Assembly (NCBI GenBank): GCA_030528845.1
Contig: JAUMYC010000013.1
Location: 1-22,897 of the forward strand
Direction: 5' to 3'
Length of the DNA: 22,897 bases
From: Eubacteriales bacterium
GTDB taxonomy: Bacteria; Bacillota_A; Clostridia; Christensenellales; Aristaeellaceae
Below, in pieces: positions 1,653-22,451 of the stretch. The notes beneath the pieces are model-generated. The model saw only the letters and a program-made list of their open reading frames with translations. It made no database searches and was not told the origin of the DNA. The position numbers and the translations under genes were made by a program. Positions within the stretch are counted from its first letter, which is position 1, and each line of letters starts with the position of its first letter.

Positions 1653-1661
1653 TATGCTATG

Positions 1662-1677
1662 GTTTCCCGCGGGAAAC
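1662..1677. promoter_or_regulatory. Perfect 16-bp palindrome, candidate repressor operator
   Basis: GTTTCCCGCGGGAAAC equals its own reverse complement over all 16 bases. It sits about ten bases past the -10 hexamer of the CE7 promoter and between the two divergent genes, a position where a bound dimer would block transcription. The centre (CCGCGG, with an inner CG step) resembles LacI-family operators in general form, but no regulator gene is in the window and the regulator family is not known. Confidence 0.6.
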
Positions 1678-1697
1678 GAAAAAAGGAGGGTTTCGCC

Positions 1698-2663
1698 ATG
1701 CCTATTGTGGATATGTCGGTGGAAAAGCTGTATGCCTTTACGGGCTGCAACCCCTGCCCGGCCGATATCGAGGAATACTGGGACCGCGCGATCGCGCAGA
1801 TGGAGGCGCTGGGCACGGAATGCGAGCTCGTGCCGGCGGCGTTTCGGGCGCCGGGCGTGGAATGCTATGATCTGTACTTCACGGGCGTGGGCGGCGCGCG
1901 CATCCACTGCCGCTTTGCAAAGCCGGCGCACGCGCAGGGCAAGCTGCCCGGCGTTTGCCTCTTCCACGGCTACACGGGCTGCGCAGATTCCTTCTCCGGC
2001 CTGATGAAGTGGTGCGCCGCGGGCATGGCCGCCGCCTCGATGGACTGCCGCGGACAGGGCGGCTCCTCGGAGGATATCGTTCCCGTGAAGGGCAACACGC
2101 ATCACGGGCATATCATCCGCGGCCTGGACGACCCGGACCCGGACAAGCTCTATTTCCGCAATGTCTTCCTGGACACCGCGCAGCTGGCGCGCATCATGAT
2201 GGCGATGGACTGCGTGGACGAGACGAAGGTAGGCGCGACGGGCGGCTCGCAGGGCGGCGGGCTGACTCTGGCCTGCGCCGCGCTCACGCCCGGGCTCAAC
2301 CGCGCCGCGCCGGTCTATCCGTTCCTGTGCGATTACAGGCGCGTGTGGGATATGGACCTCGACGTGGCGGCGTATGCCGAGCTGCGCGAGTTCTTCCGCC
2401 ATTCCGACCCGCGCCACGAGCGCGAGGAGGCGGTCTTCACGAAGCTGGGCTACATCGACAACCAGCACATCGCCCATCGCATCCGCGCGCGCGTGCTCAT
2501 GTGTACCGGCCTGCTCGACACCGTCTGTCCGCCCTCGAGCCAGTTTGCGGCGTATAACAAGATCACCGCGCAGAAGGAAGTGCTGTTCTATCCGGACTTC
2601 GGGCACGAGAACCTGCCGGAGAGCGACGATATCATCCTGCAGTTCCTCTGCGGCATGGAATGA
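1698..2663 (+). CDS. Acetyl xylan esterase / cephalosporin-C deacetylase family (CE7)
   Basis: Alpha/beta-hydrolase esterase of carbohydrate esterase family 7, which removes acetyl groups from short xylo- and other oligosaccharides, usually in the cytoplasm. The 321-residue length matches the family (about 320). Visible family signatures are RGQGG at 118-122, GGSQGG at 182-187 with nucleophile Ser184, Asp274 in LLDTVCPPSSQ, and His303 in the GHENLP segment; GY at 91-92 is the expected oxyanion-hole region. There is no signal peptide. The chosen ATG follows AAAAGGAGGG with seven bases spacing; an upstream ATG at 1659 lies at the predicted transcription start and overlaps the palindrome, so it is rejected. 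Divergence from a beta-mannosidase suggests joint use on acetylated mannan-type oligosaccharides, which is inference. Confidence 0.93.
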   Translation: MPIVDMSVEKLYAFTGCNPCPADIEEYWDRAIAQMEALGTECELVPAAFRAPGVECYDLYFTGVGGARIHCRFAKPAHAQGKLPGVCLFHGYTGCADSFSGLMKWCAAGMAAASMDCRGQGGSSEDIVPVKGNTHHGHIIRGLDDPDPDKLYFRNVFLDTAQLARIMMAMDCVDETKVGATGGSQGGGLTLACAALTPGLNRAAPVYPFLCDYRRVWDMDLDVAAYAELREFFRHSDPRHEREEAVFTKLGYIDNQHIAHRIRARVLMCTGLLDTVCPPSSQFAAYNKITAQKEVLFYPDFGHENLPESDDIILQFLCGME

Positions 2664-2883: not shown

Positions 2884-5259
2884 ATGAAGAAGATCCTTTC
2901 TGCGATCATCGCCATGTGTCTGCTGCTGTCCAGCTTCGCTCTGGCAGAGGAGACCGTCCAGGATGCGTATACGTATAACCTGGCGATCGGCGAGTTCCCG
3001 ACTGTGTGGGATCCGATGCGCACGCAGACCAATACCGACTCCACCTTCACCGGCTATCTGGGCAACGGTCTGTTCGAGTTTGACTTCAACGAAGACCTGG
3101 ACGGCTACAAGATCGTTCCGCTGGCCGCTGCCGATTTCCCGGTCGACGTGACCGCTGACTTCGTCGGCGAAGACTGGGGCATCGCCGAAGGCGACACCGC
3201 CCGCGCCTGGAAGGTCACCATCCGCGAGGATATGACCTGGGAAGACGGCACCCCCATCACCGCTGCCGATTTCGTCTATTCCGCTCAGGCCCGCCTGAAC
3301 CCGAAGGCCGCCAACTATCGCGCGGACAGCTTCTATTCCGGCAACCTGGTCATCGTCGGCGCTGAAGAGTATGCCAAGCAGGGCGTCGCTTCCGACACCA
3401 CTCTGCGCGCGTACATGGGCATCACCGGCGACACCGACGTGGCCGCCTTCCTCGAGGCCCACGGCGACATGCCCGGCTACATCAACTGGTCCTATTCCTT
3501 CGGCGACACCTATGACTTCGCCACCGAAACCTGGACCGGCACCGCTGCGGACGAGGTCGTCGAAGTTCCGATGACTCTGGCCGAGCTGTACACCTTCTAC
3601 ACCGAAGGCCCCGGCGGCGAATACATCACCTGGGCTGATCTGGCCGGCAAGCAGGAGTATGCTCTGGACGAGCTGTACGCCAAGTACACCTACGCCGAGT
3701 ATCCCTGGGAGAAGGTCGGCTTCTTTGCCACCGGCGACTACGAGTTCGTCGTCATCCTGGAGAAGGAGCTGCAGGGCTTCTATCTGTGGTACTCCATGTC
3801 TGACACCTGGCTGGTCAAGCAGGACGTCTACGAAGAGTGCATCAGCGAGACCGACGGCGTGTATTCCTGCACCTACGGCACCACCGCTGAGACCTCTCCC
3901 TCCTGGGGCCCCTACTGCATGACCGAGTTCCAGTCCGACAAGGTCATCGTGCTGGAGCGCAACGACAACTGGTTCGGCTTCAACGACGATCCCGAGATCT
4001 ATCAGACCACCGCGATCCGCTATGACTACGTCAAGGAACCCTCCACCCGTCTGGAAATGTTCCTCAACGGCCAGCTGGATTCCTACGGCCTGAGCAAGGA
4101 TGACATCGAAGTCTACGGCCAGTCCGACTACACCTACTACTCCGAAGGCGACTCCGTCTTCGCGATGGTCTTCAACCCGGACAGGGGCGCTCTGGAAGTT
4201 TCTCAGGCCAACGCCGGCGAGAACATCAACAAGACCATCCTCTCCATCACCGACTTCCGTACCGCCATGTCTCTGGCCATGAACCGCGCCGAGTTCTGCC
4301 TCGCCACCAGCCCGCTGAATGCTCCGGCCTTCGCGCTCTACGGCGGCCAGATCGTCGCTGACCCGGACAACGGTATCTTCTATCGCACCACCGACGTCGC
4401 CAAGAACGTCATCGTGGACTTCTGGGGCCTGACCGACGAGATCGGCGAGGGCAAGATGTATGCCACTGCCGACGACGCGATCGACTCCATCACCGGCTAC
4501 AACCTCGAGATGGCCAAGCAGTATTTCGATGCTGCCTATGATCAGGCGATCGCTCAGGGCCTGATGGACGAGGACGACGTGGTCGAGATCATGGTCGGCA
4601 CCCCGAACAACACCTCCACCTTCTACAACAACGGCTACGAGTTCATCGTGAACAACTACACCGAAGCTGTGAAGGGCACCAAGCTCGAAGGCAAGCTCAC
4701 CTTCAAGCGTGACGCCACTCTGGGCAACAACTTCTCCGCTGCCCTGCAGAACAACAACGTCGACATGCTCTTCGGCGTTGGCTGGACCGGCTCCACCTTC
4801 GATCCCTTCGGCCTGATGGAAGCCTACACCTCCGCCAACTATCAGTATGACCCGTCCTGGGATACCACCGCTGCGATGCTGGACATCACCCTCAACGGCG
4901 AAGTCTACACCGCTTCCGTGTGGGATTGGACGCAGGCCATCGCCGGCACCCCGGTGCAGGGCACCAAGGGCGGCGAGACTGTCGAACTGTGCTTCCCCTA
5001 CAGCACCGACGCCGCTGAAGCCGCTCTGCGCTTCGAAGTGCTCGGCGCGCTGGAAGGCGCTGTTCTGATGAACTACAACTTCATCCCGCTCATGGGCGAC
5101 TCCTCTGCCAGCCTCAAGGGCATGCAGGTCGAGTTCTATCTCGAAGACGAAGTCTTCCCGATGGGCCGCGGCGGCGTGAAGTACATGACCTACAACTACA
5201 CCGACGCTGAGTGGGACGCCTTTGTGGCTGAACAGGGCGGCACCCTCAACTACAAGTAA
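2884..5259 (+). CDS. ABC importer extracellular solute-binding protein, family 5 (oligopeptide class), oversized
   Basis: Captures the substrate outside the cell and hands it to the OppBC-like channel. The 791-residue product is well above the roughly 500-600 residues usual for SBP family 5. Residues 1-21 form a signal peptide (Lys-Lys, hydrophobic core, ALA then EE) that looks like a signal-peptidase I site. The only early Cys, residue 12, is in the hydrophobic core and is not a lipobox, so membrane anchoring is unexplained. Family-type stretches include FPTVWDPMR near the mature N-terminus, WEDGTPITAADFVYS and the later ITDFRTAMSLAMNRAEF. An optimal AGGAGG with nine-base spacing fixes the start. 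The gene uses GCT/GCC and ACC/TCC codons strongly, unlike its GCG-rich neighbours, which suggests high expression. The ligand may be a peptide or an oligosaccharide. Confidence 0.9.
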   Translation: MKKILSAIIAMCLLLSSFALAEETVQDAYTYNLAIGEFPTVWDPMRTQTNTDSTFTGYLGNGLFEFDFNEDLDGYKIVPLAAADFPVDVTADFVGEDWGIAEGDTARAWKVTIREDMTWEDGTPITAADFVYSAQARLNPKAANYRADSFYSGNLVIVGAEEYAKQGVASDTTLRAYMGITGDTDVAAFLEAHGDMPGYINWSYSFGDTYDFATETWTGTAADEVVEVPMTLAELYTFYTEGPGGEYITWADLAGKQEYALDELYAKYTYAEYPWEKVGFFATGDYEFVVILEKELQGFYLWYSMSDTWLVKQDVYEECISETDGVYSCTYGTTAETSPSWGPYCMTEFQSDKVIVLERNDNWFGFNDDPEIYQTTAIRYDYVKEPSTRLEMFLNGQLDSYGLSKDDIEVYGQSDYTYYSEGDSVFAMVFNPDRGALEVSQANAGENINKTILSITDFRTAMSLAMNRAEFCLATSPLNAPAFALYGGQIVADPDNGIFYRTTDVAKNVIVDFWGLTDEIGEGKMYATADDAIDSITGYNLEMAKQYFDAAYDQAIAQGLMDEDDVVEIMVGTPNNTSTFYNNGYEFIVNNYTEAVKGTKLEGKLTFKRDATLGNNFSAALQNNNVDMLFGVGWTGSTFDPFGLMEAYTSANYQYDPSWDTTAAMLDITLNGEVYTASVWDWTQAIAGTPVQGTKGGETVELCFPYSTDAAEAALRFEVLGALEGAVLMNYNFIPLMGDSSASLKGMQVEFYLEDEVFPMGRGGVKYMTYNYTDAEWDAFVAEQGGTLNYK

Positions 5260-5291
5260 GCACCCTATTCCGGCTCAATAGCCAAGGACTT

Positions 5292-5327
5292 TACCACGGC
5301 AGGGGCAGCTTTGCCCCTGCCGTGGTA
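5292..5327 (+). terminator. Strong hairpin between binding-protein and permease genes (partial terminator or mRNA stabiliser)
   Basis: A perfect 16-bp stem, 5292-5307 paired with 5312-5327, encloses a GCTT loop. It starts 32 bases after the binding-protein stop in a 229-base gap that otherwise holds no gene. Only a short broken T-run (CTTTTC) follows, so full termination is doubtful. Such hairpins commonly protect or attenuate, giving more binding protein than membrane components. Confidence 0.65.
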
Positions 5328-5488
5328 TACCCATCTTTTCGGCAAACGGCGCCCGCGGGCCCGCTTGCAACGGGAGCCAACACCATATTTTTCACGCTTG
5401 TACCCGGAACGGCATCTTCCGCGAAGGGGAATGGCCCGGCCTTGCCGGATATAAGCGTAAAAAATGCGAAAGGGGCCATTACACCGCA

Positions 5489-6448
5489 ATGGTTAAATAC
5501 GTACTGAAGCGACTTCTGCTCATGCTGATGGTCTTCACCATCATCGTCTCTATGTGCTTTGTGCTGGTCAAGCTGCTGCCCAACAAGCCGGCAGAGCAGT
5601 TTGGCAAGGACATGGAGCTGATCGAAATGCGCCGCGAGGCGCTGGGCTACAACAAGCCCCTGATCGAACAATACGGCATTTTCGTGCGCCGCACCCTCAT
5701 CGGAGGCGACTGGGGCATCAGCGAAAGCCTGTATCTGGGCCAAAATGTCTGGGACAAATTTATGGAAAAAATGCCCGCGACGGTGCTGGTGAACGCATAT
5801 ACGATGCTCTTCTCCGTGCCGCTGGGCCTGATGTTCGGCATTTACGCGGCGCTGAAGAAGAACAAATGGCAGGATCATTTCATTTCCACGGCCGTTATGG
5901 TCTTCGTTTCGGTCCCGAGCTATATATACGCATTCCTCGTGCAGTATATCCTCTGCTTTAAGCTGAAGGTGTTCCCCTTCCAGATGAACTCCGGTTCGGA
6001 CTACTTCAGCTGGTCCATGTTCTATTCCATGATCCCCGCGATCCTCTCGCTGGGCTTCGGCACGGTCGCCGGCCTGACGCGCTATACCCGCGCAGAGCTG
6101 ACGGAAGTGCTCACGAGCGACTTTTTGCTCCTTGCGCGCACCAAAGGCCTCTCCCGCGCGCAGACGACCGTGCGCCACGCGCTGCGCAATTCCATGGTGC
6201 CTATCTTCCCGATGATCCTCGGCGAATTCATCGGCATCATGTCCGGCTCGCTGATCATCGAAGGTATCTTCGGCATCCCCGGCGTCGGCCCGCTCTACGT
6301 CGAGTCCATCACCGCCGCCACGCCGGATTATAACTTCTTCATGCTGCTGTCCGCCTTCTACACGCTCATCGGCCTCTCTTCGGGCATCATCGTGGATATC
6401 AGCTATGGCTTTATCGATCCGAGAATCAGAATGGGGAGCAAGAAATAA
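5489..6448 (+). CDS. oppB: ABC importer permease, OppB/DppB type
   Basis: First membrane subunit of the importer, 319 residues, the usual family length. TM1 is at about 9-30 (KRLLLMLMVFTIIV), with further hydrophobic segments near 98-120, 132-156, 180-198, 240-260 and 284-304. The cytoplasmic coupling loop that contacts the ATPases is DFLLLARTKGLSRAQTTVRH at 211-230, followed by the ALRNSMVPI segment, and the protein ends with the typical DPRIRMG. The start ATG has only a modest GAAAGGGG site about 13 bases upstream. The stop TAA overlaps the oppC start by one base (TAATG), indicating translational coupling. Unlike the other subunits, this one carries no insertion. Confidence 0.93.
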   Translation: MVKYVLKRLLLMLMVFTIIVSMCFVLVKLLPNKPAEQFGKDMELIEMRREALGYNKPLIEQYGIFVRRTLIGGDWGISESLYLGQNVWDKFMEKMPATVLVNAYTMLFSVPLGLMFGIYAALKKNKWQDHFISTAVMVFVSVPSYIYAFLVQYILCFKLKVFPFQMNSGSDYFSWSMFYSMIPAILSLGFGTVAGLTRYTRAELTEVLTSDFLLLARTKGLSRAQTTVRHALRNSMVPIFPMILGEFIGIMSGSLIIEGIFGIPGVGPLYVESITAATPDYNFFMLLSAFYTLIGLSSGIIVDISYGFIDPRIRMGSKK

Positions 6449-7971
6449 TGAGCAAGACAAAGATCAATATGAATATTCCTGCCTCTCAGTTCGAATTTGT
6501 CGGAACAGAAGGCCGGATGCACGACAAAAAGCTGGATACGAAGCCGATCGGCTACTTCAAGGACGTGTGGCTGCGCTTTTGCAAAAACAAGAGCTCGGTC
6601 GTCGCGGCCTGCATCATCGTGGTGCTGGTCCTCTTTGCCGTGTTCGTACCGCTGCTGTGCGAGACTTCCTATTCGCTGGCGCTGACGGACACGATGTACC
6701 TCAACTATGCCAAGCTGCCGCCCAAATTCATGCCCCTTGGCATCGACGGCACCTCCGACGCGACCGTGAACACCGCCACCTACAACGCCTATCGCGCCAT
6801 CGGCATCGAGACGGGCCTCGATCCGATCGTGGAAGTGTACCGGGCCGATTACGAAGACCCGACCGCCAGCAAAAAGGCGCGCTTCTTCGACATCAAGCTG
6901 GACAACTATTACAAGATGGGCATGCTCTATCTCACCCTGACGCCCGCGCAGTATGAAGACCTGCAGGCGTGGCAGGACGAGACCGGCATTCAGGTCATCT
7001 ATCCGGCGATCACCGACGCGAAGCAGACCGACGCCAACATCTGGTATGAGGCGGACAGAAAGGGCGCGCCGCAGCTGGACAAGGAAGGCAACTTCCAGCC
7101 CATCTACCGCACCACCACGCCCACGGACACCTCCTATCACTCTCTGCGCATCCCCGCGGACAACGACCCGGAGAACCCGCTCGCCTATGCGCGCGTGACG
7201 GGCACCTCCGAGGCCAAGAGCTATGTCGTGCGTGTGAGCAAGTATACCTACTTCCAGTATCGCTACGGCTTTGAGCCGGCCTTCACCTTCGGCACCAACG
7301 ACAAGGGCCAGGATATCCTGACCCGCCTTGCCGCCGGCGCCCGCTTCAGCTTCCTGCTGGCCATCTCCGTCTCCGCCATCAACCTCTTCCTCGGCTCCGT
7401 TTACGGCGCCATCGAGGGCTACTACGGCGGCGCGGTCGACCTGATCATGGAGCGCATTTCGGATATCCTAAGCGGTATCCCCTTCATCGTCGTTACGACG
7501 CTCTTCCAGCTGCATTTGTCAAAACGGGTGGGCGTCGTGCCAGCGCTATTATTCGCCTATGTGCTCACAGGCTGGATCGGCATGGCCTCGCGCGTGCGCA
7601 TGCAGTTCTACCGCTTTAAGGGGCAGGAGCATATCCTCGCTGCGAGGACTCTGGGCGCGAGCGACGCAAGGCTCATGTTCAAGCACATCTTCCCGAACTC
7701 GATGGGCACGCTGATCACCGGCTCCGTGCTGGTCATCCCGGGCGTTATCTTCAGCGAGAGCTCCATGACCTATCTGGGCATCGTCAACCTCGAATCCTCC
7801 ACCATGACCAGCGTGGGCACGATGCTCGCCAACGGCAAAAACTACCTCGCGACAGACCCGTACATCATCTTCTTCCCGGCGCTGTTCATCGCGCTGCTGG
7901 AGATCTCCTTCAACCTCTTCGGCAACGGTCTGCGCGATGCGTTCAATCCTTCTCTGAGGGGGGCGGAATAA
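6448..7971 (+). CDS. oppC: ABC importer permease, OppC/DppC type, with large extracytoplasmic insertion
   Basis: Second membrane subunit, 507 residues against about 300 for ordinary OppC. A cytoplasmic N-terminus precedes TM1 at about 50-70. Residues 71-280 form a hydrophilic stretch before the family signature FGTNDKGQDIL (281-291), where ordinary members have only about 40 residues. It therefore carries roughly 170 extra residues, rich in Tyr, Asp and Thr. Since TM1 crosses from inside to outside, this domain should face the binding protein. The remaining channel is normal: GARFSFLLAISVSAIN, GAIEGYYGG, coupling loop EHILAARTLGASDARLMFKH (394-413) and a C-terminal NLFGNGLRDAFNPSLRG. The start overlaps the oppB stop, and the next gene begins one base after this stop. 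Confidence 0.92.
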   Translation: MSKTKINMNIPASQFEFVGTEGRMHDKKLDTKPIGYFKDVWLRFCKNKSSVVAACIIVVLVLFAVFVPLLCETSYSLALTDTMYLNYAKLPPKFMPLGIDGTSDATVNTATYNAYRAIGIETGLDPIVEVYRADYEDPTASKKARFFDIKLDNYYKMGMLYLTLTPAQYEDLQAWQDETGIQVIYPAITDAKQTDANIWYEADRKGAPQLDKEGNFQPIYRTTTPTDTSYHSLRIPADNDPENPLAYARVTGTSEAKSYVVRVSKYTYFQYRYGFEPAFTFGTNDKGQDILTRLAAGARFSFLLAISVSAINLFLGSVYGAIEGYYGGAVDLIMERISDILSGIPFIVVTTLFQLHLSKRVGVVPALLFAYVLTGWIGMASRVRMQFYRFKGQEHILAARTLGASDARLMFKHIFPNSMGTLITGSVLVIPGVIFSESSMTYLGIVNLESSTMTSVGTMLANGKNYLATDPYIIFFPALFIALLEISFNLFGNGLRDAFNPSLRGAE

Positions 7972-7972
7972 T

Positions 7973-10174
7973 ATGGCACTGGAAAAGAAACTGCAGGTAC
8001 ACGACCTTCGCATATCGTTCCGCACGATCTCCGGCAAGCTGCAGGCTGTGCGCGATATCAGCTTCGATCTGTATAAGGGCGAGACGCTGGCCATCGTGGG
8101 CGAGTCCGGCTCCGGTAAATCCGTGACCTCCAAGGCGATCCAGGGCATTTTGGCCAACAACGCCATCGTCGAAGGCGGCGAGATCCTCTACGACGGGCAG
8201 GACCTGCTCAAGATCAGCGAGGAAGACTTCTATAAGCTGCGCGGCGACAAGATCGCCATGATCTTCCAGGACCCGCTCTCGAGCCTGAACCCGATCATGC
8301 GCATCGGCAAGCAGCTGACCGAGGCCATGCTGCTCAAGGGCAAGGCGCGCCAGAAGGCGAGCAAGGAGAGCTTCCACAACAAGAGCAAGCTGCTCGAGGA
8401 ATATATGACCGCCGCGAAGCCGGACAAGGCCGAGCGCGTCAAGCAGCTGTGCGAGATCTTCCGCAAGTTTGAAATGCGCCACATCCAGCTCGAGCAGGCC
8501 TACAACGCCGCGCACGAGTCTGCCGAGGAGGCGCTCGTGGAGATCGAAAACGCGCTCTTCCTCATCAGCAAGAACTCCTTCAAGGACGCCGAGGCGACCC
8601 TCAAGCAGATCAGCGAATTTGCGCTGCACTCCGAAAACCCCTATGTCACCGCGGACATGAGCGAGCTCAAGCCCCTTGCGGAAGGGCTGACCTCCGGCGT
8701 GCGCGCGCAGGTCAAGAAGGGCGAATTCGGCGAGACGAAGAAGAAGCTCGAGCGCATGCAGGCGATCCTCGGCAAGGCCGCAGGCAAGGCCAGGCCGGAT
8801 TTCTTCGCCATGGGCTATTATCTGGAGACCTCCGGCCAGCCGGAGAAGACCGGCGAGGCCGCAGCAAACAACGCCTTCTACGCCCAGTATCTCAACGAGC
8901 ATTTCCTGCAGGAATTCTCTGCGCTGGCCGCGGCCGGCGTGGAATGGGCCGACAAAAAGTACAGCGCCAAGCGCGCGGAAGCGATCAAAGAGCTCGACGC
9001 CGCGTTCAAGGAGCTCGGCGGCGCGCCGGCGGAGGATATCGACGAGATCGACGCGGCCAAGCTGGAAGCCGCCTTTGAAAAGGCGGACCTTGCCAAACTG
9101 ACCGAGCAGCTCAAAAAGACCGTCGCGGCTTCGATCGACCCGATCGACATCGTGAAGGATTCCGCCGCGTGCACCTTCGGCGGCTCTCTGAGCGCCTTTG
9201 TGAGCACCTACGGCAACGGCAAGCGCAACAACGGCCGCAAGGAGGCCAAGTATCAGCGTCAGATGGCCAGCTACAACCGCAAGGTCGCCAAGGGCCGCAC
9301 GCTCGATTACAAGATCCCCGAGCCGTCCATCGTCAACCTCGACCTGACGCGCCGCAACATCCTCAGCCTCGTGCGCAACCTTTCCGTGCATTATCAGCAG
9401 CGCCTCGCTGCCGAGCAGCACGCCGACGCGCAGGCCAAGGCGGAGCGCATCATCGAATATCTCAAGGAGAACGCCTCCGGCATGGTCTACAAGATCACCA
9501 AGCAGGCGGCGAAGAACAAGGCGCTCAAGCTGATGGAGGAAGTGGGCATTTCCGAGCCGCGCAAGCGCTATAAGCAGTATCCCTTCGAGTTCTCCGGCGG
9601 CATGCGCCAGCGCATCGTCATCGCCATCGCTCTGGCGGCAGACCCGGACATCCTCATCTGCGACGAGCCGACCACAGCGCTGGACGTGACCATTCAGGCG
9701 CAGATCCTCGAGCTGATCAACAAGCTCAAGCGCGAGCGCAACCTGACCATCATCTTCATCACGCACGATCTGGGCGTCGTGGCCAACATGGCCGACCGCA
9801 TCGGCGTTATGTACGCCGGAAAGATCGTGGAATACGGCACGGCCGAAGAAGTCTTCTACGACCCGCGCCACCCCTATACCTGGGCGCTGCTCTCCTCCAT
9901 GCCCGATCTGGAGACGAAGGAGAAGCTGGAGGCCATCCCCGGCACGCCGCCGGATATGATCTACCCGCCCAAGGGCGACGCCTTTGCCGACCGCAACCGC
10001 TACGCCCTGAAGATCGACTTCGAGGAGCAGCCGCCGCAGTTCCCCGTCTCCGAGACGCACTGGGCCGCGACCTGGCTCCTGCACCCCAATGCGCCCAAGA
10101 TCGACCCGCCCAAGACGGTCACGGACCGCATCGCCAAAATGAAGGCAAGGATGGGAGGGAACGCGAATGTCTAA
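7973..10174 (+). CDS. oppD: ABC importer ATPase, OppD/DppD type, with about 380-residue insertion in the helical domain
   Basis: ATP-hydrolysing subunit, 733 residues against about 330 normally. All nucleotide-binding motifs are intact: Walker A GESGSGKS (43-50), Q-loop IFQDP with Gln99, signature FSGGMRQR (540-547), Walker B ILICDEP with Asp564-Glu565, and H-loop His598. The extra residues, about 131-510, lie between the Q-loop and the signature, inside the helical subdomain. They are rich in Ala, Lys and Glu, look mostly helical and include a very basic patch around 417-445. The C-terminal Oligo_HPY-type tail is present (residues 660-710), but the four Cys that bind an iron-sulfur cluster in many DppD/OppD proteins are replaced by Asp, Asn, Asp and Thr. 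The ATG follows a GAGGGGGG site, and the gene overlaps oppF by eight bases. Confidence 0.93.
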
Positions 10175-11351
10175 CACGCAGGAAGTGCTTCTGCGAGTGG
10201 AGCATCTGTGCCAGTATTTCAAGGGCACGAAGGCTGTGGATGACGTCAGCTTCGACGTGAAAAAGGGCGAGGTCTTCGGCCTTGTCGGCGAATCCGGCTG
10301 CGGCAAGACGACCACCGGCCGCTCCATCATCAAGCTCTACGACATTACTTCCGGTAATATTTACTTCAAGGGCAAGCGCATCGCTGCGGGCACCCGCTCC
10401 TACAAGCAGGCCATCGCCTCCGCCCGCGCGGAAATGCGCACGGCAGACCCGGCCCGCAAGGCGCAGCTCAAGGAATTCATCGCGCAGCAGCGCGAGCAGA
10501 TGAAGCAGGCGATCTTTGATCACAAAAACTGCGACAAGCTGCACAGCAAGGACCTCGCGGCGGATGTGGAAGCGAAATATCAGCCGCTGCTGGCCGCTGC
10601 CTCGGGCGAGCAGCTCGAAAAGCTGAAAAAGCAGTATGCCTACGACCTGAACATCGCCAAGAAGCAGCGCTACATCACCCAGATCCAGATGATCTTTCAG
10701 GATCCGACCGCGTCTCTCGACCCGCGCATGACGGTGTACGAGATCATCGCCGAGGGCCTGATCATCCGCGGCGAAACGGACAAGAAGGTCATCGACGAAA
10801 AGGTGTACGGCGTTTTGGAGACCGTCGGCCTCGTGCGCGAGCATGCCACGCGCTATCCGCACGAATTCTCCGGCGGCCAGAAGCAGCGCATCGGCGTTGC
10901 GCGCGCCGTGGTCATGAACCCGGAGCTTATCATCGCCGACGAGCCCGTTTCCGCGCTGGACGTGTCCATTCAGGCGCAGGTCATCAACCTGCTCAACGAG
11001 CTGCGGCACAAGCTGGGGCTGACGATCCTGTTCATCGCGCATGACCTCTCCGTCGTGAAATACTTCTCCGACCGCATCGGCGTGATGTATTTCGGCAAGC
11101 TGGTGGAGCTGGCCACGTCCGACGAGCTCTTTGCCAACCCGCTGCATCCCTACACCGCGTCGCTGCTCTCGGCCATCCCGCTGCCGGACCCGGTCTACGA
11201 AAAGCAGCGCGTGCGCATCAAGTACGATCCGCTCTCCGCGCATGATTATTCCAAGGACGCCCCCACGATGCGCGAGGTCTCCCCGGGCCATTTCGTGCAG
11301 TGCAACGAGGCGGAATACAAAGCCTACCGCAAAAAGCTGGGCCTGAACTGA
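10167..11351 (+). CDS. oppF: ABC importer ATPase, OppF/DppF type, with insertion before the Q-loop
   Basis: Second ATPase of the importer, pairing with OppD. It has 394 residues against about 310-335 usually. Motifs are Walker A GESGCGKT (41-48), Q-loop QMIFQDP with Gln178, signature FSGGQKQR (234-241), Walker B IIADEP with Asp258-Glu259 and H-loop His292. The segment at about 72-168, between FKGKR and the Q-loop strand, is a charged, Ala/Lys/Gln-rich helical stretch of about 95 residues where ordinary members have about 15-20. The C-terminus ends with the clostridial-type MREVSPGHFVQCNEAEYKAYRKK. The start has GGGAGGGAACGCG upstream inside oppD. The insertion site differs from that in OppD, so the two insertions arose separately or have separate jobs. 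Confidence 0.93.
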   Translation: MSNTQEVLLRVEHLCQYFKGTKAVDDVSFDVKKGEVFGLVGESGCGKTTTGRSIIKLYDITSGNIYFKGKRIAAGTRSYKQAIASARAEMRTADPARKAQLKEFIAQQREQMKQAIFDHKNCDKLHSKDLAADVEAKYQPLLAAASGEQLEKLKKQYAYDLNIAKKQRYITQIQMIFQDPTASLDPRMTVYEIIAEGLIIRGETDKKVIDEKVYGVLETVGLVREHATRYPHEFSGGQKQRIGVARAVVMNPELIIADEPVSALDVSIQAQVINLLNELRHKLGLTILFIAHDLSVVKYFSDRIGVMYFGKLVELATSDELFANPLHPYTASLLSAIPLPDPVYEKQRVRIKYDPLSAHDYSKDAPTMREVSPGHFVQCNEAEYKAYRKKLGLN

Positions 11352-11363
11352 GAAATGGCATAG

Positions 11364-11397
11364 AAAAGAGCCACGGGCGCGCGCCTGTGGCTCTTTT
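11364..11397 (+). terminator. Intrinsic terminator after oppF
   Basis: AAAAGAGCCAC pairs with GTGGCTCTTTT (11 bp), extended by one G-T pair and three G-C pairs around a GCGC loop, with the T-run forming the stem end. It begins 13 bases after the oppF stop. The next gene's ribosome-binding site starts four bases later and no promoter is visible between, so some read-through or a promoter inside oppF is likely. Confidence 0.8.
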
Positions 11398-11416: not shown

Positions 11417-11836
11417 ATGGAACATAAATGGCGAACGAGGCTTCTGCAATACGGCATCACGCTGGCGGTCGGCCTGCTCATCGCGGGGCTGGTGGCGTGC
11501 TATCGCGGCTTTGCCTTCGGCGCAGACGCCGCCTGGAACATGCGCTATCTGAGCGACGGCTGCTTTGTCTCGACGGTGCTGCTGTGCGGCGTGGGCGGGC
11601 TGGTGCTCATCTCCACGGCGACGGATTTTTTCGACATGATCAGCTATGGCTTCAAGAGCCTTCTGGTGCTCTTTACACCGCTGCGCAAGCCCTCCGAGCA
11701 CCAGAGCTTTTTCGACTATAAGACCGAGCGCGCGGCGCGGCGCACGAAGGCGGAGCCGTTTCTGCTGGCGGTCGGGCTGGTGTTTCTGGCCGCGTCGTTT
11801 GCCTTTCTGGGGCTGTATTATGCCCTGCTGGGCTGA
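11417..11836 (+). CDS. Small integral membrane protein, DUF3899-like
   Basis: 139 residues with three predicted membrane segments: about 10-28, 49-68 and 115-136. A conserved-looking FFDMISYGFKSL sequence at 71-82 follows the second segment, and a basic cytoplasmic stretch (FFDYKTERAARRTK) precedes the third. This arrangement and the F-D-x-x-S/G-Y-G-F core match my recollection of the DUF3899 family, whose function is not known. The ATG at 11417 is preceded by AAGGAGAGAGG, which rules out the longer upstream frame that would begin inside oppF and cross the terminator. The following gene starts 11 bases after this stop, so the two are probably co-transcribed. Confidence 0.75.
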   Translation: MEHKWRTRLLQYGITLAVGLLIAGLVACYRGFAFGADAAWNMRYLSDGCFVSTVLLCGVGGLVLISTATDFFDMISYGFKSLLVLFTPLRKPSEHQSFFDYKTERAARRTKAEPFLLAVGLVFLAASFAFLGLYYALLG

Positions 11837-14133: not shown

Positions 14134-15207
14134 TCAATTTGTCAGCGCGTTTGCGCCGAAGCTGACGAGCGTTCCGTAGGTTTCGATCTCATAGAGCTGC
14201 TGCGCGTATTCGGCCTCGTAGGCCGCCGTCTTCTCTGCCCACAGGGCGGAAACGGCCTCGTCGCCGCGGTAGTCGGTCAGGTCGAAGCGCTCCTTGAGCC
14301 ATGCGCCGAAATAGCGCGAGAGCTTCTCCGCGCCCTGCTTGTTCAGATGCAGGCCGCCGTCGTAGGTGTCCTGCGTCATGTCCAGACCGATCTGCTGCTG
14401 CAGGGGGATGAAGTTGACGTACTGCAGGCCGTTCTCCTGCGCAAAGCGGACGATCTGCTCGTCCCACTGCGCGTACCAGTGCGGGTATTCCGTGGGGGCC
14501 TTGACGAGCACGAGCGCCACGCCCTTTTCCTTGCAGAGGTCGGCCATTTTTTGCAGATAGCCCATGGCCTTGTCGCCGAGGGTATAGTCCGCCAGCGGCA
14601 TCGCGGGCGGGAAGCCTGTCTGCGGCTTTACGTCCGCGCGCATGGAATAGCCGCTGTGCGTGACGAGCTCTTTGGAGAAGAGGTGGACGAAGTCGTCCCG
14701 GGTGAGCTCGGCCCAGCGGGAGTGATAGCGCAGGATGGGGAAGAGATAGTCCAGAAAATGCTCCTCGGGCGTCATAGAGGCGAGGATGCAGCGCGCCTTG
14801 GAGCCGCTCCAGCGCATGCCGTCGATGTTCATGCGGTTGTAGGCCTCGCTCTGCGGCTTGTTGTACTTCAGTGCCAGCACGTTGTACACCACGACGCGGG
14901 GCGTTTCATAGCGCAGCGCGTCCTCGAGGAGATAATAGGAATGCCACGCCAGCTGCTGCGGGCCGCCGCGCAGATAGGAAGAAATGCCGTATTCCTGAAA
15001 GAGCGTGACGGGCGAGAAGCTCTCATAGATCTCGCAGTCGCCCACCATCAGCACTTCGTGCGGGGCCTCGTCGCGGTAATATTCTTCTGTCATGCTGCCT
15101 TCGATGACGCCGCTTTGATACTTCGGCATGAGCAGCCGCTGCAAAAGCGCGAGCGCGCCGACAGCTAGGGCCGCGCAGACGAGGGCGGCGAGAGTGCGTC
15201 TGTTCAT
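14134..15207 (-). CDS. SGNH/GDSL hydrolase-like, DltD-position protein with Cys in the nucleophile site
   Basis: 357 residues. The N-terminal segment 4-27 is a hydrophobic anchor, placing the rest outside the cell. The SGNH fold is suggested by LMVGDCEIYESFSP (53-66) as block I, where the usual nucleophile Ser is Cys58, and by DGGLHLNKQGAEK (283-295) as block V, giving Asp283 and His287. In between, AWHSYYLLEDALRYETPRVVVYNV and ALVLVKAPTEYPHWYAQW fit the fold's alternating strands and helices. Its position after an MBOAT gene matches DltD or the AlgX/AlgJ type acetylation proteins, which complete acyl transfer to a polymer on the outer face. GGAGG eight to ten bases upstream fixes the start. 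A thioester on Cys58 is possible but inferred. Confidence 0.82.
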   Translation of the reverse strand: MNRRTLAALVCAALAVGALALLQRLLMPKYQSGVIEGSMTEEYYRDEAPHEVLMVGDCEIYESFSPVTLFQEYGISSYLRGGPQQLAWHSYYLLEDALRYETPRVVVYNVLALKYNKPQSEAYNRMNIDGMRWSGSKARCILASMTPEEHFLDYLFPILRYHSRWAELTRDDFVHLFSKELVTHSGYSMRADVKPQTGFPPAMPLADYTLGDKAMGYLQKMADLCKEKGVALVLVKAPTEYPHWYAQWDEQIVRFAQENGLQYVNFIPLQQQIGLDMTQDTYDGGLHLNKQGAEKLSRYFGAWLKERFDLTDYRGDEAVSALWAEKTAAYEAEYAQQLYEIETYGTLVSFGANALTN

Positions 15208-15222
15208 TTGTGCCGTCCTCCG

Positions 15223-16797
15223 TCAGAATTGATTGTAGATGAATTGGCTCGAATCGTAGCCCACGCCGTATGCGCCGAAGATGACGCAGGCGACGCACAG
15301 CAGCGCCAGAGCGCCGTAAAAGGCGAAGGGCCTCTGCCAGAGCAGCGCGCGCACAGAGCCTTTTTTACGCTTGCACAGGCTCACGCTCAGGATGACGGCG
15401 AAGGCGAAGAGCAGCACGGCGTAATCCGCCCCGCTCAGGCCGATGCGCAGCAGCGTCCCGTCAAAAAGCGCGAGCGGGCGCAGGTCTGTGAACATGGAGC
15501 CGACCATGCGCAAAGTGAGCGGCACGTCGCGGTAGCAGTCGAACATGCGGATGCAGCTCATCAGGAGCATCGTGCGCACGACGGCAAAGGCGCCCCAGAG
15601 CGGCTTGTCCCGCCAGCCAAAGCGCCGGTGAAAGCGTGCATAGAGGGGCTCAAGCTCCTGCGAGAACATGATCACGACGAAATTGGCCAGCCCCCACGCG
15701 ATGAAATTCCATGCCGCGCCATGCCAGAGGCCCGTGGTGAACCAGACGAGGAAGCCGGCCAGATAGACCGGCAGGCGCTTGGCGAGGGCCGGGGGCAGGT
15801 GCGCGCGGCTCCATTTGGAGAGGCGCAGCATGGGCCCGCACACGGAGACGGGGTAGAAGATGTAATCGGTAAACCAGCTGCCCATGCTGATGTGCCAGCG
15901 GTTCCAATATTCCTTGGTGCTCTTGGAGAAGAAGGGCAGATCGAAGTTTTCCTTGATGCGAATGCCCATCATCTGCGCAAGGCCGATGGTGATGTCGATG
16001 CCGCCGGTGAAATCGCAATAGAGCTCAAAGGCATAAAAGAGCATGGCCGCGAAGGCGAACGGGCCGGAATAGGCCTGCGGACCCTGCACGAGCGTCGTCA
16101 CCGCACCGATCAGCCTGTCCGCCACGACCAGCTTCTTGAAATAGCCCCATGCCACGCGCATGAGCCCGAAGGAGACGGTCTGCGGCTCGAAGGGGTGGGG
16201 CGAGAAGAGCGTTTGGGAGAGGTCGCCGTAGCGGCTGATGGGCCCCTGCACCAGCTGCGGAAAGAAGGAGACGAACAGCGCGAATTTGAAGGGGTTGCGC
16301 TGCGCGCGCTGCCGCCCGCGGTAGACGTCGATCAGATAGCCGACGGCCTGAAAGGTATAAAAGGACACGCCCATCGGTACGATCAGCCCGATCGGCGAAA
16401 AGGGCCTGCTCAGCAAAGAGGCGATGTTCTCCAGCACAAAGTTTGTGTATTTGGTGACGCTGAGCACGCCGATATTGAGCAAAAGCCCGCCCAGCAGCCA
16501 TTTCCATTTGCGCGCCTTGGTCTGCGCGCGCAGCTGCTTTTTCTCCTCGCGGGAGAGATGGTCGCCCTGGGCGAGGGCGGCCTCCAGCGCGGAGTGCAGG
16601 TCGTCCATTTTGCAGCCGATCAGCCAGACGCTCAGCGCCGTCAGCGCGATGAAGAAGAGATAGCGCCAGTCCGCAAGGGCGTAAAAGCCGCAGCTGGCGA
16701 TGAGCAGCAGCGGCCATTGGCATTTACGGGGCAGGAGATAATACAGCGCGAGCACGAGCAGCGCAAAGCCGAGGAAGCCGTAGGAAGTCAGCAGCAT
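15223..16797 (-). CDS. MBOAT family membrane O-acyltransferase (DltB/AlgI-like)
   Basis: 524-residue polytopic membrane protein that should pass an acyl group from the cytoplasmic carrier protein to an extracellular acceptor. Family marks are FVSFFPQLVQGPISRY (175-190), LYCDFTGGIDITIGLAQMMG (259-278), the YWNRWHISMGSWFTDYIFYP region (297-316) with His302, and WHGAAWNF with the invariant catalytic-site His359. Length and hydrophobic pattern fit AlgI/DltB-type proteins; the roughly 35-residue basic loop at 65-100 (ending TKARKWKW) is a cytoplasmic segment. The ATG follows the carrier-protein stop by one base, so translation is probably coupled. Immediate neighbours, a carrier protein upstream and an SGNH-like protein downstream, support a dlt-like pathway rather than acetyl-CoA use. 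Confidence 0.92.
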   Translation of the reverse strand: MLLTSYGFLGFALLVLALYYLLPRKCQWPLLLIASCGFYALADWRYLFFIALTALSVWLIGCKMDDLHSALEAALAQGDHLSREEKKQLRAQTKARKWKWLLGGLLLNIGVLSVTKYTNFVLENIASLLSRPFSPIGLIVPMGVSFYTFQAVGYLIDVYRGRQRAQRNPFKFALFVSFFPQLVQGPISRYGDLSQTLFSPHPFEPQTVSFGLMRVAWGYFKKLVVADRLIGAVTTLVQGPQAYSGPFAFAAMLFYAFELYCDFTGGIDITIGLAQMMGIRIKENFDLPFFSKSTKEYWNRWHISMGSWFTDYIFYPVSVCGPMLRLSKWSRAHLPPALAKRLPVYLAGFLVWFTTGLWHGAAWNFIAWGLANFVVIMFSQELEPLYARFHRRFGWRDKPLWGAFAVVRTMLLMSCIRMFDCYRDVPLTLRMVGSMFTDLRPLALFDGTLLRIGLSGADYAVLLFAFAVILSVSLCKRKKGSVRALLWQRPFAFYGALALLCVACVIFGAYGVGYDSSQFIYNQF

Positions 16798-16798
16798 A

Positions 16799-17026
16799 TC
16801 ATTCGTTTTCCAGCCGCTCGATCAGGCTCCAAAGCGCGCGTGCGGAATTGAAGTTCTCCGGCGCGATCTCCTCCGCCGGCACGACCACGTCGAACTCTTC
16901 GCTGATCTCGGTGATGATGTTGATGATATCGAACGAATCGAGGATCTTTTTGTCCACGAGGCCGTCGGTGTTGGCGAAATCGACGTCCGGGTGCAGCGCT
17001 TCGAGAATGCGGATGAGCTTGTCCAT
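16799..17026 (-). CDS. Acyl/aminoacyl carrier protein (DltC-like)
   Basis: 75-residue acidic carrier protein. ILDSFDIINII at 28-38 has the phosphopantetheine attachment Ser31 in a D-S-F-D context, where fatty-acid ACP has D-S-L and DltC commonly D-S-M. The remaining helices (EISEEFDVVVPAEEI, SARALWSLIERL) fit the four-helix fold. It is encoded six bases after the adenylation enzyme and one base before the MBOAT gene, so it should receive the activated acyl group from the former and present it to the latter. Placing the carrier before the MBOAT gene reverses the B-C order of classic dltABCD. Confidence 0.9.
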   Translation of the reverse strand: MDKLIRILEALHPDVDFANTDGLVDKKILDSFDIINIITEISEEFDVVVPAEEIAPENFNSARALWSLIERLENE

Positions 17027-17032
17027 GTTCGT

Positions 17033-18559
17033 TTATCGCTCCTTTTTCTTCTGTTCGTAGAGGGCCTTGAGGCCCACGCGGTCCAGCTTGCCGTTGGCCG
17101 TCAGCGGCATCTGCTCCAGCCGGAGCACGACGCCGGGCAGCATATAGCGCGGCAGCGCCTCGCGCAGCGCTTTGGAGAGCTCCTGCTCCGCCAGATCGCC
17201 TGCGAAGAACAGCGCGATGCGCCCCTTCTCCGGGTCGTACAGGCAGCAGCAGGCGCGCACGCCCTCGAGCATGTTCACATTGGCCTCGATCTCGCCCAGC
17301 TCGATGCGATGGCCCATGTGCTTGATCTGATAATCCTTGCGCGAGACGAAGACGAGCTCGCCGCGCTCGTTGCGCCGCCCCAGATCGCCCGTGCGGTAGA
17401 TCAGCTCCGGATAGCGGTCGTTGAGCGGGTTTTGCACGAAGACCTCGCCGGTCTTGTCAAAGGCGCGATAGTAGCCCAGAGTCAGGCTCGTGCCGCGCAC
17501 GCAGATCTCGCCGATCTCTCCCTCGGCTGCCGCTTTGTTTTGCTCGTTGAGCAGCAAGATCTCCGTGTTGCGGAAGGGCCTGCCGATCGGCACGGGCTCG
17601 TCCGGCGCGAAGTCGCGGTCCACCTTATAATAGCAGCACATGCCGGTGGTCTCCGTCGGGCCGTAGAGGTTGGTGAAGCCGGCCTCGGGCAGGGCCTCGC
17701 GCCAGAGACGCAGCTGCTTGATGGGGAAGACCTCACTGCCGAAGGCGACGGTGTGCAGATATTGAGGCTTGACCTTCTCAAACGTGCGCAGCGCGGAGAT
17801 CATCGTCAGCGCAGAGACCACCCAGCACACCGTGTTCACCCGGTGCTCGTTGAGAAATTCCACCAGCCGCACGGGGAACATGAACAGCTCCTTGGGGATG
17901 ATCACCGTCGTCGCGCCGAATTTGAGCGTGGGATAGAGCTCCTTGAGGCAGGCGTCGAAATAGAGCGGCGACTGCAGCCCGAAGCGGGTCTCCTCGCCAA
18001 AGCCGAGCACGTCCGAGAGGTTTTCGATGTAATCGATGACGCTCCTGTGGCAGGCGACCACGCCCTTGGGCACGCCCGTGGAGCCGGAGGTGAAGACGAT
18101 GTAGATCGGGTCGGTGTCCAGCTGCGCCTCGCGCACGCGCTGCAGTGCGGCCTCGTCGGCTGGATGGGCAGCGGCCTCGCTGTAGAGCAGCAGTTCGCCG
18201 TGGAAATCGAGCCCGCGCGCCGCCTCGAGCGTGCTCTCGTCGCAGAGCACCACGCGCGGCTGCAGGTTTTTGAAGATCAGCTCGATGCGCAGGCGGGGCA
18301 TTTCGACGTCGATAGGCACATAAAAGCAGCCCGCATACACGCAGCCGAAGAAGGCGGCGATGGCCTCGGGGCTCTTTTTCATGAACACGACCACGCCCTC
18401 GCGCGCGTAGCCCTTTTCCAACAGCGCAGAGCCTACGCCCCGGGCGGCGCGGGAGACCTGTGCAAAGCTCAGCGCGTGCTCCGCGTCCAAAAAGGCGGCT
18501 TTGTCCGGCAGGCGCGCCGCGGTGTGTTCGAGATATTCCAGTACGTTGGTCTGCTGCAT
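17033..18559 (-). CDS. AMP-forming adenylation enzyme (DltA-like amino acid / carboxylate ligase)
   Basis: 508 residues, the size of DltA. It activates a carboxylate with ATP and loads it on the carrier protein encoded next. Core motifs are FTSGSTGVPKG (156-166), FDACLKELYP with Asp202, NLYGPTETT (297-305), YRTGDLG (388-394), QIKHMGHRIELGEIE (411-425) and NGKLDR with the catalytic Lys491. Asp202 sits where amino-acid-activating enzymes hold the substrate amino group. In DltA the D-alanine selectivity Cys lies in an F-C-G-E-V segment; here the corresponding stretch reads AFGSEVFP (272-279), without Cys, so the substrate may not be D-alanine. The start follows CGAGGAA. It lies 29 bases downstream of the transglutaminase-like gene, in the same operon. 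Confidence 0.9.
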   Translation of the reverse strand: MQQTNVLEYLEHTAARLPDKAAFLDAEHALSFAQVSRAARGVGSALLEKGYAREGVVVFMKKSPEAIAAFFGCVYAGCFYVPIDVEMPRLRIELIFKNLQPRVVLCDESTLEAARGLDFHGELLLYSEAAAHPADEAALQRVREAQLDTDPIYIVFTSGSTGVPKGVVACHRSVIDYIENLSDVLGFGEETRFGLQSPLYFDACLKELYPTLKFGATTVIIPKELFMFPVRLVEFLNEHRVNTVCWVVSALTMISALRTFEKVKPQYLHTVAFGSEVFPIKQLRLWREALPEAGFTNLYGPTETTGMCCYYKVDRDFAPDEPVPIGRPFRNTEILLLNEQNKAAAEGEIGEICVRGTSLTLGYYRAFDKTGEVFVQNPLNDRYPELIYRTGDLGRRNERGELVFVSRKDYQIKHMGHRIELGEIEANVNMLEGVRACCCLYDPEKGRIALFFAGDLAEQELSKALREALPRYMLPGVVLRLEQMPLTANGKLDRVGLKALYEQKKKER

Positions 18560-22161: not shown

Positions 22162-22203
22162 TTGTTTCGCACTCTCCTTTCGCGCAGCCTCCTGCGCATT
22201 TCC

Positions 22204-22212
22204 ATTGTAACA
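22204..22212 (-). promoter_or_regulatory. Extended -10 promoter of the S9 peptidase gene
   Basis: TGTTACAAT on the minus strand joins a TGn element to TACAAT, 42 bases before the start codon. The -35 region is GC-rich and unrecognisable. Confidence 0.5.
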
Positions 22213-22451
22213 CAACCCCGCCCCCGCGCGCCAGCGCAATTAAAACAGGGCATAGTCCGATGAATTTACCAATTTGCTTCCTATGGGCTATTTTATTACG
22301 ATTCGTTTACGGCTATAATAACAACACAGGGGAAAGTCTGTTTCACACCCGTGAAGTTTTTCCCCGGCGCTGCCGGGCACAGAAGCCTTCTGCGGCGCGT
22401 TTCTTATCTGTTTTTGTACAGAAACTTCATCTTCGGGCGGTGTACACCCCG

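What the first reader, a model, noticed from the sequence alone, without database searches (positions are those of the whole stretch)
2884..11351. ABC importer in which four of five subunits are enlarged
The gene order and motifs are those of an ordinary Opp/Dpp importer, but OppC, OppD and OppF carry large insertions at three different structural places and the binding protein is about 200 residues longer than usual; only OppB has normal size. All core ATPase and permease motifs are intact, so the machine should work. Enlargement of several subunits together suggests matched extra domains, perhaps on both sides of the membrane, for docking an extra partner or handling a large substrate.
Basis: partly seen in the sequence, partly recalled or inferred. 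Interest (0 to 1): 0.8.

Follow-up and report, generated by a model that had tools for sequence, protein, structure and literature searches.

The report
Peptide importer with added coordinated domains
A bacterial peptide-uptake pump found in many gut and rumen Clostridia carries extra, inherited domains on four of its five parts and an unstudied small membrane protein beside it; what the additions do is untested.

Summary
OppA is 791 aa, OppB 319, OppC 507, OppD 733, OppF 394, with core domains intact. The extras are family traits: a ~210-residue OppC ectodomain between TM1 and TM2, a ~380-residue helical OppD arm between Q-loop and signature, a ~95-residue OppF arm before the Q-loop, and ~220-245 more OppA residues.

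They co-occur. Of 396 genomes of one order, 57 match both ectodomain and OppD arm, 5 the ectodomain only (contigs end before OppD), 3 the arm only (OppC there has an even larger, mostly different loop). Of 69 complete ectodomain operons, 64 have both arms, 2 lack the OppD arm, 3 lack both. So the outside module can exist without the inside one.

The OppD arm is predicted well folded, the ectodomain only partly. No subunit contact could be tested.

I read it as a new architectural variant of the known Opp3 importer: a MalF-P2-like docking domain outside, paired helical arms inside. Mollicute Opp is a precedent, but its OppD insert sits elsewhere.

The parts
2884..5259 (+). oppA, SBP_bac_5 binding protein, 791 aa; signal peptide without lipobox as read in the sequence
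   Evidence: signal read
3376..3783 (+). approximate first extra stretch of OppA (residues ~165-300); about 110 further residues lie somewhere after residue 439
   Evidence: anchors of the match to 6npo; estimate
5292..5327 (+). 16-bp perfect hairpin between oppA and oppB
   Evidence: read
5489..6448 (+). oppB permease, 319 aa, normal size
6448..7971 (+). oppC permease, 507 aa
6643..7275 (+). OppC ectodomain, residues ~66-276, between TM1 and TM2
7973..10174 (+). oppD ATPase, 733 aa
8345..9490 (+). OppD helical arm, residues ~125-506, after the Q-loop and before the signature
10167..11351 (+). oppF ATPase, 394 aa
10383..10664 (+). OppF arm, residues ~73-166, before the Q-loop
   Evidence: same site in the loci
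11364..11397 (+). terminator-like palindrome between oppF and the DUF3899 gene
   Evidence: read; the scan did not list it
11417..11836 (+). DUF3899 (PF13038) small hydrophobic protein, 139 aa, candidate sixth subunit

Best explanation
This is an Opp3-type (type I ABC) peptide importer of an enlarged architectural variant. Shown: four subunits carry family-specific domains inherited as a set, with a DUF3899 gene beside the operon. Inferred: OppA captures peptide outside. The OppC TM1-TM2 ectodomain acts as a docking tower that holds or orients the enlarged OppA, as the MalF-P2 loop does for maltose-binding protein. OppB and OppC form the channel and OppD and OppF hydrolyse ATP. The helical arms of OppD and OppF work as a pair on the cytosolic side, stabilising or gating the ATPase heterodimer or docking a cytosolic partner. 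DUF3899 is an accessory membrane subunit. Inheritance as a set: about 0.9. OppC-OppA docking: about 0.5. Paired arms: about 0.4. DUF3899 as a physical subunit: about 0.4.
For: Core families and order. Co-occurrence: of 80 loci, 69 have complete C, D and F; 64 have both arms, none the OppD arm without the OppF arm. In 396 genomes of one order searched separately for each domain: 57 both, 5 ectodomain-only, 3 arm-only, 331 neither; the five are cut by contig ends, the three have OppC of 628-650 aa. In 32 loci fetched from these same genomes, OppD is readable in 30 and all 30 have the arm. One ectodomain gene per genome in 17 of 17. The OppD arm is length-constrained (Q-loop to signature quartiles 424-433 residues in 95 loci) and ordered in the model (block pLDDT 72-97) although its median pairwise identity is 27%. 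TM1-TM2 is a periplasmic region of DppC, and the binding protein sits on the permease pair (passages of PMC12136057). DUF3899 in 60 of 60 loci with room.
Against: No contact was shown. In DppABCDF the scoop that enters the binding protein comes from DppB, not DppC (passages), so docking by OppC is an extra assumption. The ectodomain occurs without arms (5 of 69), so the modules are not obligate partners. Only part of the ectodomain is modelled with confidence (blocks 101-180 at 76-82; other blocks 26-76). Arm charges of OppD and OppF do not correlate (r -0.01 in 66 loci). Co-divergence is similar for pairs on opposite sides of the membrane. DUF3899 also lies beside arm-less Opp operons, and was not found after oppF in L122, so it is neither specific nor universal. 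The OppF distal arm segment comes and goes (83-85 versus 128).
Confidence: 0.5

Rival explanations
1. The cytosolic arms are docking sites for a soluble partner (peptidase, regulator) and not for each other; the transporter delivers peptides to it.
For: The OppD arm is fast-evolving but length-conserved, as a partner-binding appendage could be. No OppD-OppF charge match.
Against: No soluble gene is conserved beside the operon: at blastp E 1e-12 and half coverage, the clusters found in 10 or more loci are the opp genes, DUF3899 and one minus-strand cluster overlying the operon; a partner encoded elsewhere would not show. OppD arm never without OppF arm in 69 loci.
Confidence: 0.3
2. The inserts are near-neutral lineage baggage: dispensable domains tolerated in proteins with slow cores, co-inherited because the operon is inherited as a block.
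For: Arm-less natural variants exist (L019, L020, L070, L071, L073). The OppF arm length switches within clades. Co-occurrence alone follows from vertical descent.
Against: OppD arm length is held within about ten residues in half of the loci despite 27% identity, the ectodomain has 7 invariant columns in 23 divergent rows, and the ectodomain is found in records titled Clostridia, Lachnospiraceae, Erysipelotrichia, Spirochaetes and Bacillales.
Confidence: 0.15
3. It is a member of the mollicute-type expanded Opp (NCBIfam MMSYN1_0167/0168; that MMSYN1 is the minimal Mycoplasma cell is recalled).
For: These models are the best NCBIfam hits of OppD and OppF; the OppF insert lies at the same site.
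Against: Scores 470.6 against a cut-off of 740 and 399.1 against 800. In the mollicute OppD model the insert lies before the Q-loop, here after it. The mollicute OppC model is 307 long, too short for the ectodomain. A better match to that OppD model sits in a separate neighbouring operon in L005 (one stretch 10-592, 690 bits, still under the cut-off).
Confidence: 0.03

Closest known systems
Opp3-type oligopeptide importer (NCBIfam NF045471 Opp3B, NF045475 Opp3C)
   Same: Best NCBIfam hits of OppB and OppC; same core domains.
   Different: Below equivalog cut-offs (235 of 480; 254.7 of 450); extra domains on A, C, D and F.
Mollicute OppD/OppF (NF043079, NF043078); OppF of M. synoviae 797 aa (passage, PMC7456371); OppA of M. 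hominis reaching residue 961 (passage, PMC3179953)
   Same: Enlarged A, D and F, each seen in different species; OppF insert at the same site.
   Different: OppD insert before the Q-loop instead of after; OppC model 307 long.
MalF-P2 loop of the maltose importer (title of Daus 2009 seen in the reference list of PMC3328499; details recalled)
   Same: One permease subunit carries a large extracytoplasmic stretch that interacts with the binding protein (per that title).
   Different: Different subunit family and, as recalled, a different loop (TM3-TM4); no contact shown here.
SMC/Rad50-type ABC ATPases (recalled)
   Same: A long helical insert between the Q-loop lobe and the signature lobe.
   Different: A transporter NBD with oligo_HPY tail; the SMC_N hit is below cut-off (27.6 of 40).

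Membership tests
Opp/Dpp type I peptide importer | SBP_bac_5 binding protein, two BPD_transp_1 permeases, two ABC ATPases with oligo_HPY tails, in one operon | tested here: met
Opp/Dpp type I peptide importer | transports peptides | not testable with these tools
   no assay
NCBIfam Opp3B/Opp3C equivalogs | score above curated cut-off | tested here: not met
   235 of 480 and 254.7 of 450
Mollicute OppD (NF043079) | score above cut-off and insert before the Q-loop | tested here: not met
   470.6 of 740; insert after the Q-loop
Mollicute OppF (NF043078) | score above cut-off | tested here: not met
   399.1 of 800
Mollicute OppF (NF043078) | insert between Walker A and the Q-loop | tested here: met
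   (model positions 75 to 382 unmatched); the window's insert alone matched no family
MalF-P2-like docking domain | large extracytoplasmic domain in one permease | tested here: met
   sidedness only by homology to DppC
MalF-P2-like docking domain | contacts the binding protein | not testable with these tools
   no complex modelling
MalF-P2-like docking domain | same fold as MalF P2 | tested here: inconclusive
   the permease fills the hit lists
SMC/RecN family | Pfam SMC_N above cut-off | tested here: not met
   27.6 of 40

The most novel reading that the evidence does not exclude
A six-component class of ABC importer: OppABCDF plus a DUF3899 membrane subunit. An OppC tower permanently holds an oversized binding protein, and paired OppD/OppF helical arms form a cytosolic scaffold that couples import to assembly or to a partner, a control layer not described for type I importers as far as I know.
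Probability: 0.22. Interest if true: 0.75.

Novelty: new variant of a known kind. Interest (0 to 1): 0.55.

Why it matters
Solved Opp and Dpp machines are compact. Here an importer that recurs in uncultured gut and rumen Clostridia keeps large additions on both sides of the membrane, with natural arm-less variants as controls. That makes it a ready test of how accessory domains control a type I importer, and it gives a first genomic context to DUF3899, for which one full-text search of the held library found no paper.

Tried and rejected
Fe-S replacement idea: I asked whether the arms replace the [4Fe-4S] cysteine cluster of DppD/DppF (PMC12136057). In the loci printed the cysteine tail is absent in the armed and in the arm-less OppD of this family alike, so this was dropped.

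Soluble OppA retained by the OppC tower: OppA here has no lipobox. But in six relatives 22 of the 31 binding proteins with a readable signal also lack one (29 of 60 fetched loci were unreadable, the pattern is rough, and two of the 22 are the OppA in question), so it looks like a lineage trait.

Homology among the inserts: hhalign of OppC ectodomain, both arms, OppF N-terminal domain, second-operon pieces and OppA gave nothing; a split-half control worked. The second-operon OppD set wrongly included two OppD-OppF fusions.

Mirror-tree: every pair of regions correlates after correction for the OppB/OppC core, on the same or opposite sides of the membrane (45 rows that had every region). Lengths of A, C, D and F are also weakly correlated (Spearman 0.15 to 0.46), not corrected for kinship.

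Three losses of the OppD arm: the OppB+OppC tree puts the arm-less loci at three nested places (3 changes), but on the OppD-core tree all five sit near the base together with armed L068/L072 (2 changes), and on the OppF-core tree only L019/L020 are nested. Replacement, ancestral absence or long-branch artefact are possible, so I claim separability, not a number of losses. These are quick trees with many open forks.

Fold search: hits of both models were filled by the permease or the ATPase; the fold of the inserts remains unknown. The 'WA-Q 399' OppD of the second operon in L045 proved to be an OppD-OppF fusion; L061 has the same size and was not tested.

Weak points: the OppC model was built on only 20 sequences, which may explain its low confidence. 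The lipobox pattern is loose (34 of 66) and counts doubtful cases. The 80 loci are the best 80 of 98 by match to the full OppC, so they test the arms given the ectodomain, not the ectodomain itself; some are near-identical pairs. The DUF3899 model was grown from the same loci at E 1e-3, and a few of its extra hits on the minus strand (L012, L013) look spurious.

Full report
WHAT IS THERE. The window holds oppA-oppB-oppC-oppD-oppF at 2884-11351 as described. Sizes are 791, 319, 507, 733 and 394 aa. Pfam finds SBP_bac_5, BPD_transp_1 with OppC_N, and ABC_tran with oligo_HPY. The best solved relatives of OppC, OppD and OppF are among E. coli OppBCDF/DppBCDF and M. tuberculosis OppABCD/DppABCD; their alignments leave the extra stretches uncovered. 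Inserts: OppC residues ~66-276 between TM1 and TM2; OppD ~125-506 after the Q-loop; OppF ~73-166 before the Q-loop; OppA about 220-245 residues more than 6npo, in two stretches (estimate). The inserts of C, D and F have no Pfam or NCBIfam match above cut-off.

THE INSERTS ARE FAMILY TRAITS. Searches with the OppD and OppC inserts gave 267 and 621 proteins at E <= 0.001 (the first among a capped 7992 candidates); the best 120 of each were listed, mostly full-length relatives. A scan of genome contigs with an OppC alignment gave 98 relatives, of which the best 80 were kept, with record titles naming Clostridia, Christensenella, Lachnospiraceae, Erysipelotrichia, Spirochaetes and Bacillales. Each of 17 genomes tested has one match to the ectodomain. 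With the window's ectodomain as query it was found in 34 of 200 genomes of the order of G002 but in 1 of 398 drawn from the phylum, that one being G002 itself. Names of orders are not given for these genomes; some listed homologues are named Christensenellales.

CO-OCCURRENCE. I measured distances between motifs in every locus. In the 69 of 80 loci with complete C, D and F: OppD arm in 64, OppF arm of 70 or more in 66, both in 64, OppD arm alone in none, OppF arm alone in L019 and L020, neither in L070, L071 and L073. Searching 396 genomes of one order separately with an ectodomain alignment and an arm alignment gave 62 and 60 genomes, 57 shared (Fisher p 5e-59, which ignores kinship). The five ectodomain-only genomes all have contigs that end before OppD can be read through. 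The three arm-only genomes have OppC of 628-650 aa with a still larger TM1-TM2 loop; the ectodomain model does not match it at E 0.01, though BLAST to the window's OppC covers its first part. In 32 loci fetched from these genomes for the ectodomain (L094 and L125 repeat contigs of the first set), OppD is readable in 30 and armed in all 30. So within this order an armed OppD and an OppC with a large loop go together without exception where both can be read, while elsewhere the ectodomain exists without arms.

ARM-LESS VARIANTS. L019, L020, L070, L071 and L073 have compact OppD of 350-378 aa with Walker A, Q-loop and signature. On a tree of OppB plus OppC cores they fall at three nested places. 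On the OppD-core tree they are basal, and on the OppF-core tree only L019/L020 are nested, beside relatives with a longer OppF arm. Whether the arm was lost, the gene replaced, or the arm never gained is open; L019/L020 have B, C and F nested among armed relatives.

STRUCTURE. The OppD model (66 sequences, mean pLDDT 74.9) shows the arm as long helices, 111-148, 150-199, 296-347, 397-439 and 456-481, with block pLDDT 72-97 over residues 121-506. The OppC model (20 sequences) is poor, mean 53.5; ectodomain residues 101-180 reach about 80 and show strands and helices, the rest is uncertain. Fold searches were filled by the core domains. The loop is extracytoplasmic by homology: TM1-TM2 of DppC is described as periplasmic (passages of PMC12136057). 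The same passages place the scoop that enters the binding protein in DppB, so a docking role of OppC would be additional.

A SIXTH GENE. Clustering of neighbours showed a small hydrophobic protein in 47 loci. The window's copy is DUF3899. Of 60 loci with complete oppF and at least 1500 bases after it, 52 have it directly downstream on the same strand, often overlapping by a few bases, and all 60 have a hit somewhere in the locus; in L028, L034, L075 and L076 it lies before oppA. Of the 32 loci of the second set 28 have it; L104, L118 and L119 are cut by contig ends and L122 is a miss. In the window it lies at 11417-11836, 65 bases after oppF, behind a terminator-like palindrome. In 299 phylum genomes it passes the cut-off in 6; of the 5 besides G002, 4 have arm-less opp genes nearby (OppC 306-378 aa) and L110 has none. 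So it is a general Opp neighbour rather than a mark of the enlarged variant. One full-text search for DUF3899 found no paper.

MECHANISM. Shown: composition, co-inheritance, a predicted ordered OppD arm, adjacency of DUF3899. Established for the family: the binding protein delivers peptide to the permease pair and ATP drives import. Inferred: the OppC ectodomain docks OppA as MalF P2 does for MalE; OppD and OppF arms act together in the cytosol; DUF3899 assists in the membrane. Sequence co-divergence and arm charge do not decide this.

WHAT IS KNOWN. The nearest precedent is the mollicute Opp. By the pieces matched, its OppD model has the insert between positions 81 and ~306, before the Q-loop, and its OppF model between 75 and 382. 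M. synoviae OppF is reported as 797 aa, about 94 kDa and detected by immunoblot (passage); M. hominis OppA reaches residue 961 (passage). Strikingly, the neighbouring second operon in L005 carries a 603-aa OppD that matches the mollicute OppD model in one stretch over nearly its whole length (690 bits, cut-off 740). So two differently expanded Opp types can stand side by side. Literature searches showed no listed title or abstract about an OppC ectodomain or a Q-loop-to-signature arm in an Opp importer; only the top rows of each search were listed, and most subscription papers are not in the library.

Noticed in passing
window 11417-11836; L001-L080: DUF3899 gene beside the operon: a hit in 60 of 60 checkable loci, also beside arm-less opp genes.
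   Followed up: yes
L021, L042-L046, L048, L050-L053, L061, L062, L064, L078, L079: OppF has an extra N-terminal domain of about 400 residues, seen as two hydrophobic segments with a long stretch between them, before the ATPase; 16 complete loci (17 ORFs with partial L059). Two tested against Pfam gave no match above cut-off.
   Followed up: partly
L186, L187, L188; L108; L123: OppC of 628-650, 1001 and 782 aa: the TM1-TM2 loop is further enlarged; four of them tested (L186, L187, L108, L123) show no added Pfam domain above cut-off.
   Followed up: partly
L005 2327-4138; L007; L124: A second, adjacent opp operon with a 603-aa OppD; the one from L005 was tested and matches the mollicute OppD model.
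   Followed up: partly
L045 3875-5971; L061: Second-operon OppD and OppF fused into one ~698-aa protein; L045 tested, L061 has the same size.
   Followed up: partly
window 2884-2960; loci: OppA signal peptide lacks a lipobox in most of the window's close relatives, while Lachnospiraceae and Erysipelotrichia copies have one (loose pattern); probably a lineage trait.
   Followed up: yes
window 5292-5327 and 11364-11397: Perfect 16-bp hairpin between oppA and oppB, and a terminator-like palindrome after oppF.
   Followed up: no
window 1659-2663: AXE1-type acetyl esterase gene upstream of oppA.
   Followed up: no
window 14134-18559, minus strand: GDSL-like protein (weak), MBOAT acyltransferase and AMP-binding enzyme in a row, resembling a dlt-type D-alanylation cluster (Pfam; dlt name recalled).
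   Followed up: no
window 18589-19917 and 20167-22239, minus strand: Ig-like/transglutaminase protein and a prolyl oligopeptidase-family peptidase.
   Followed up: no
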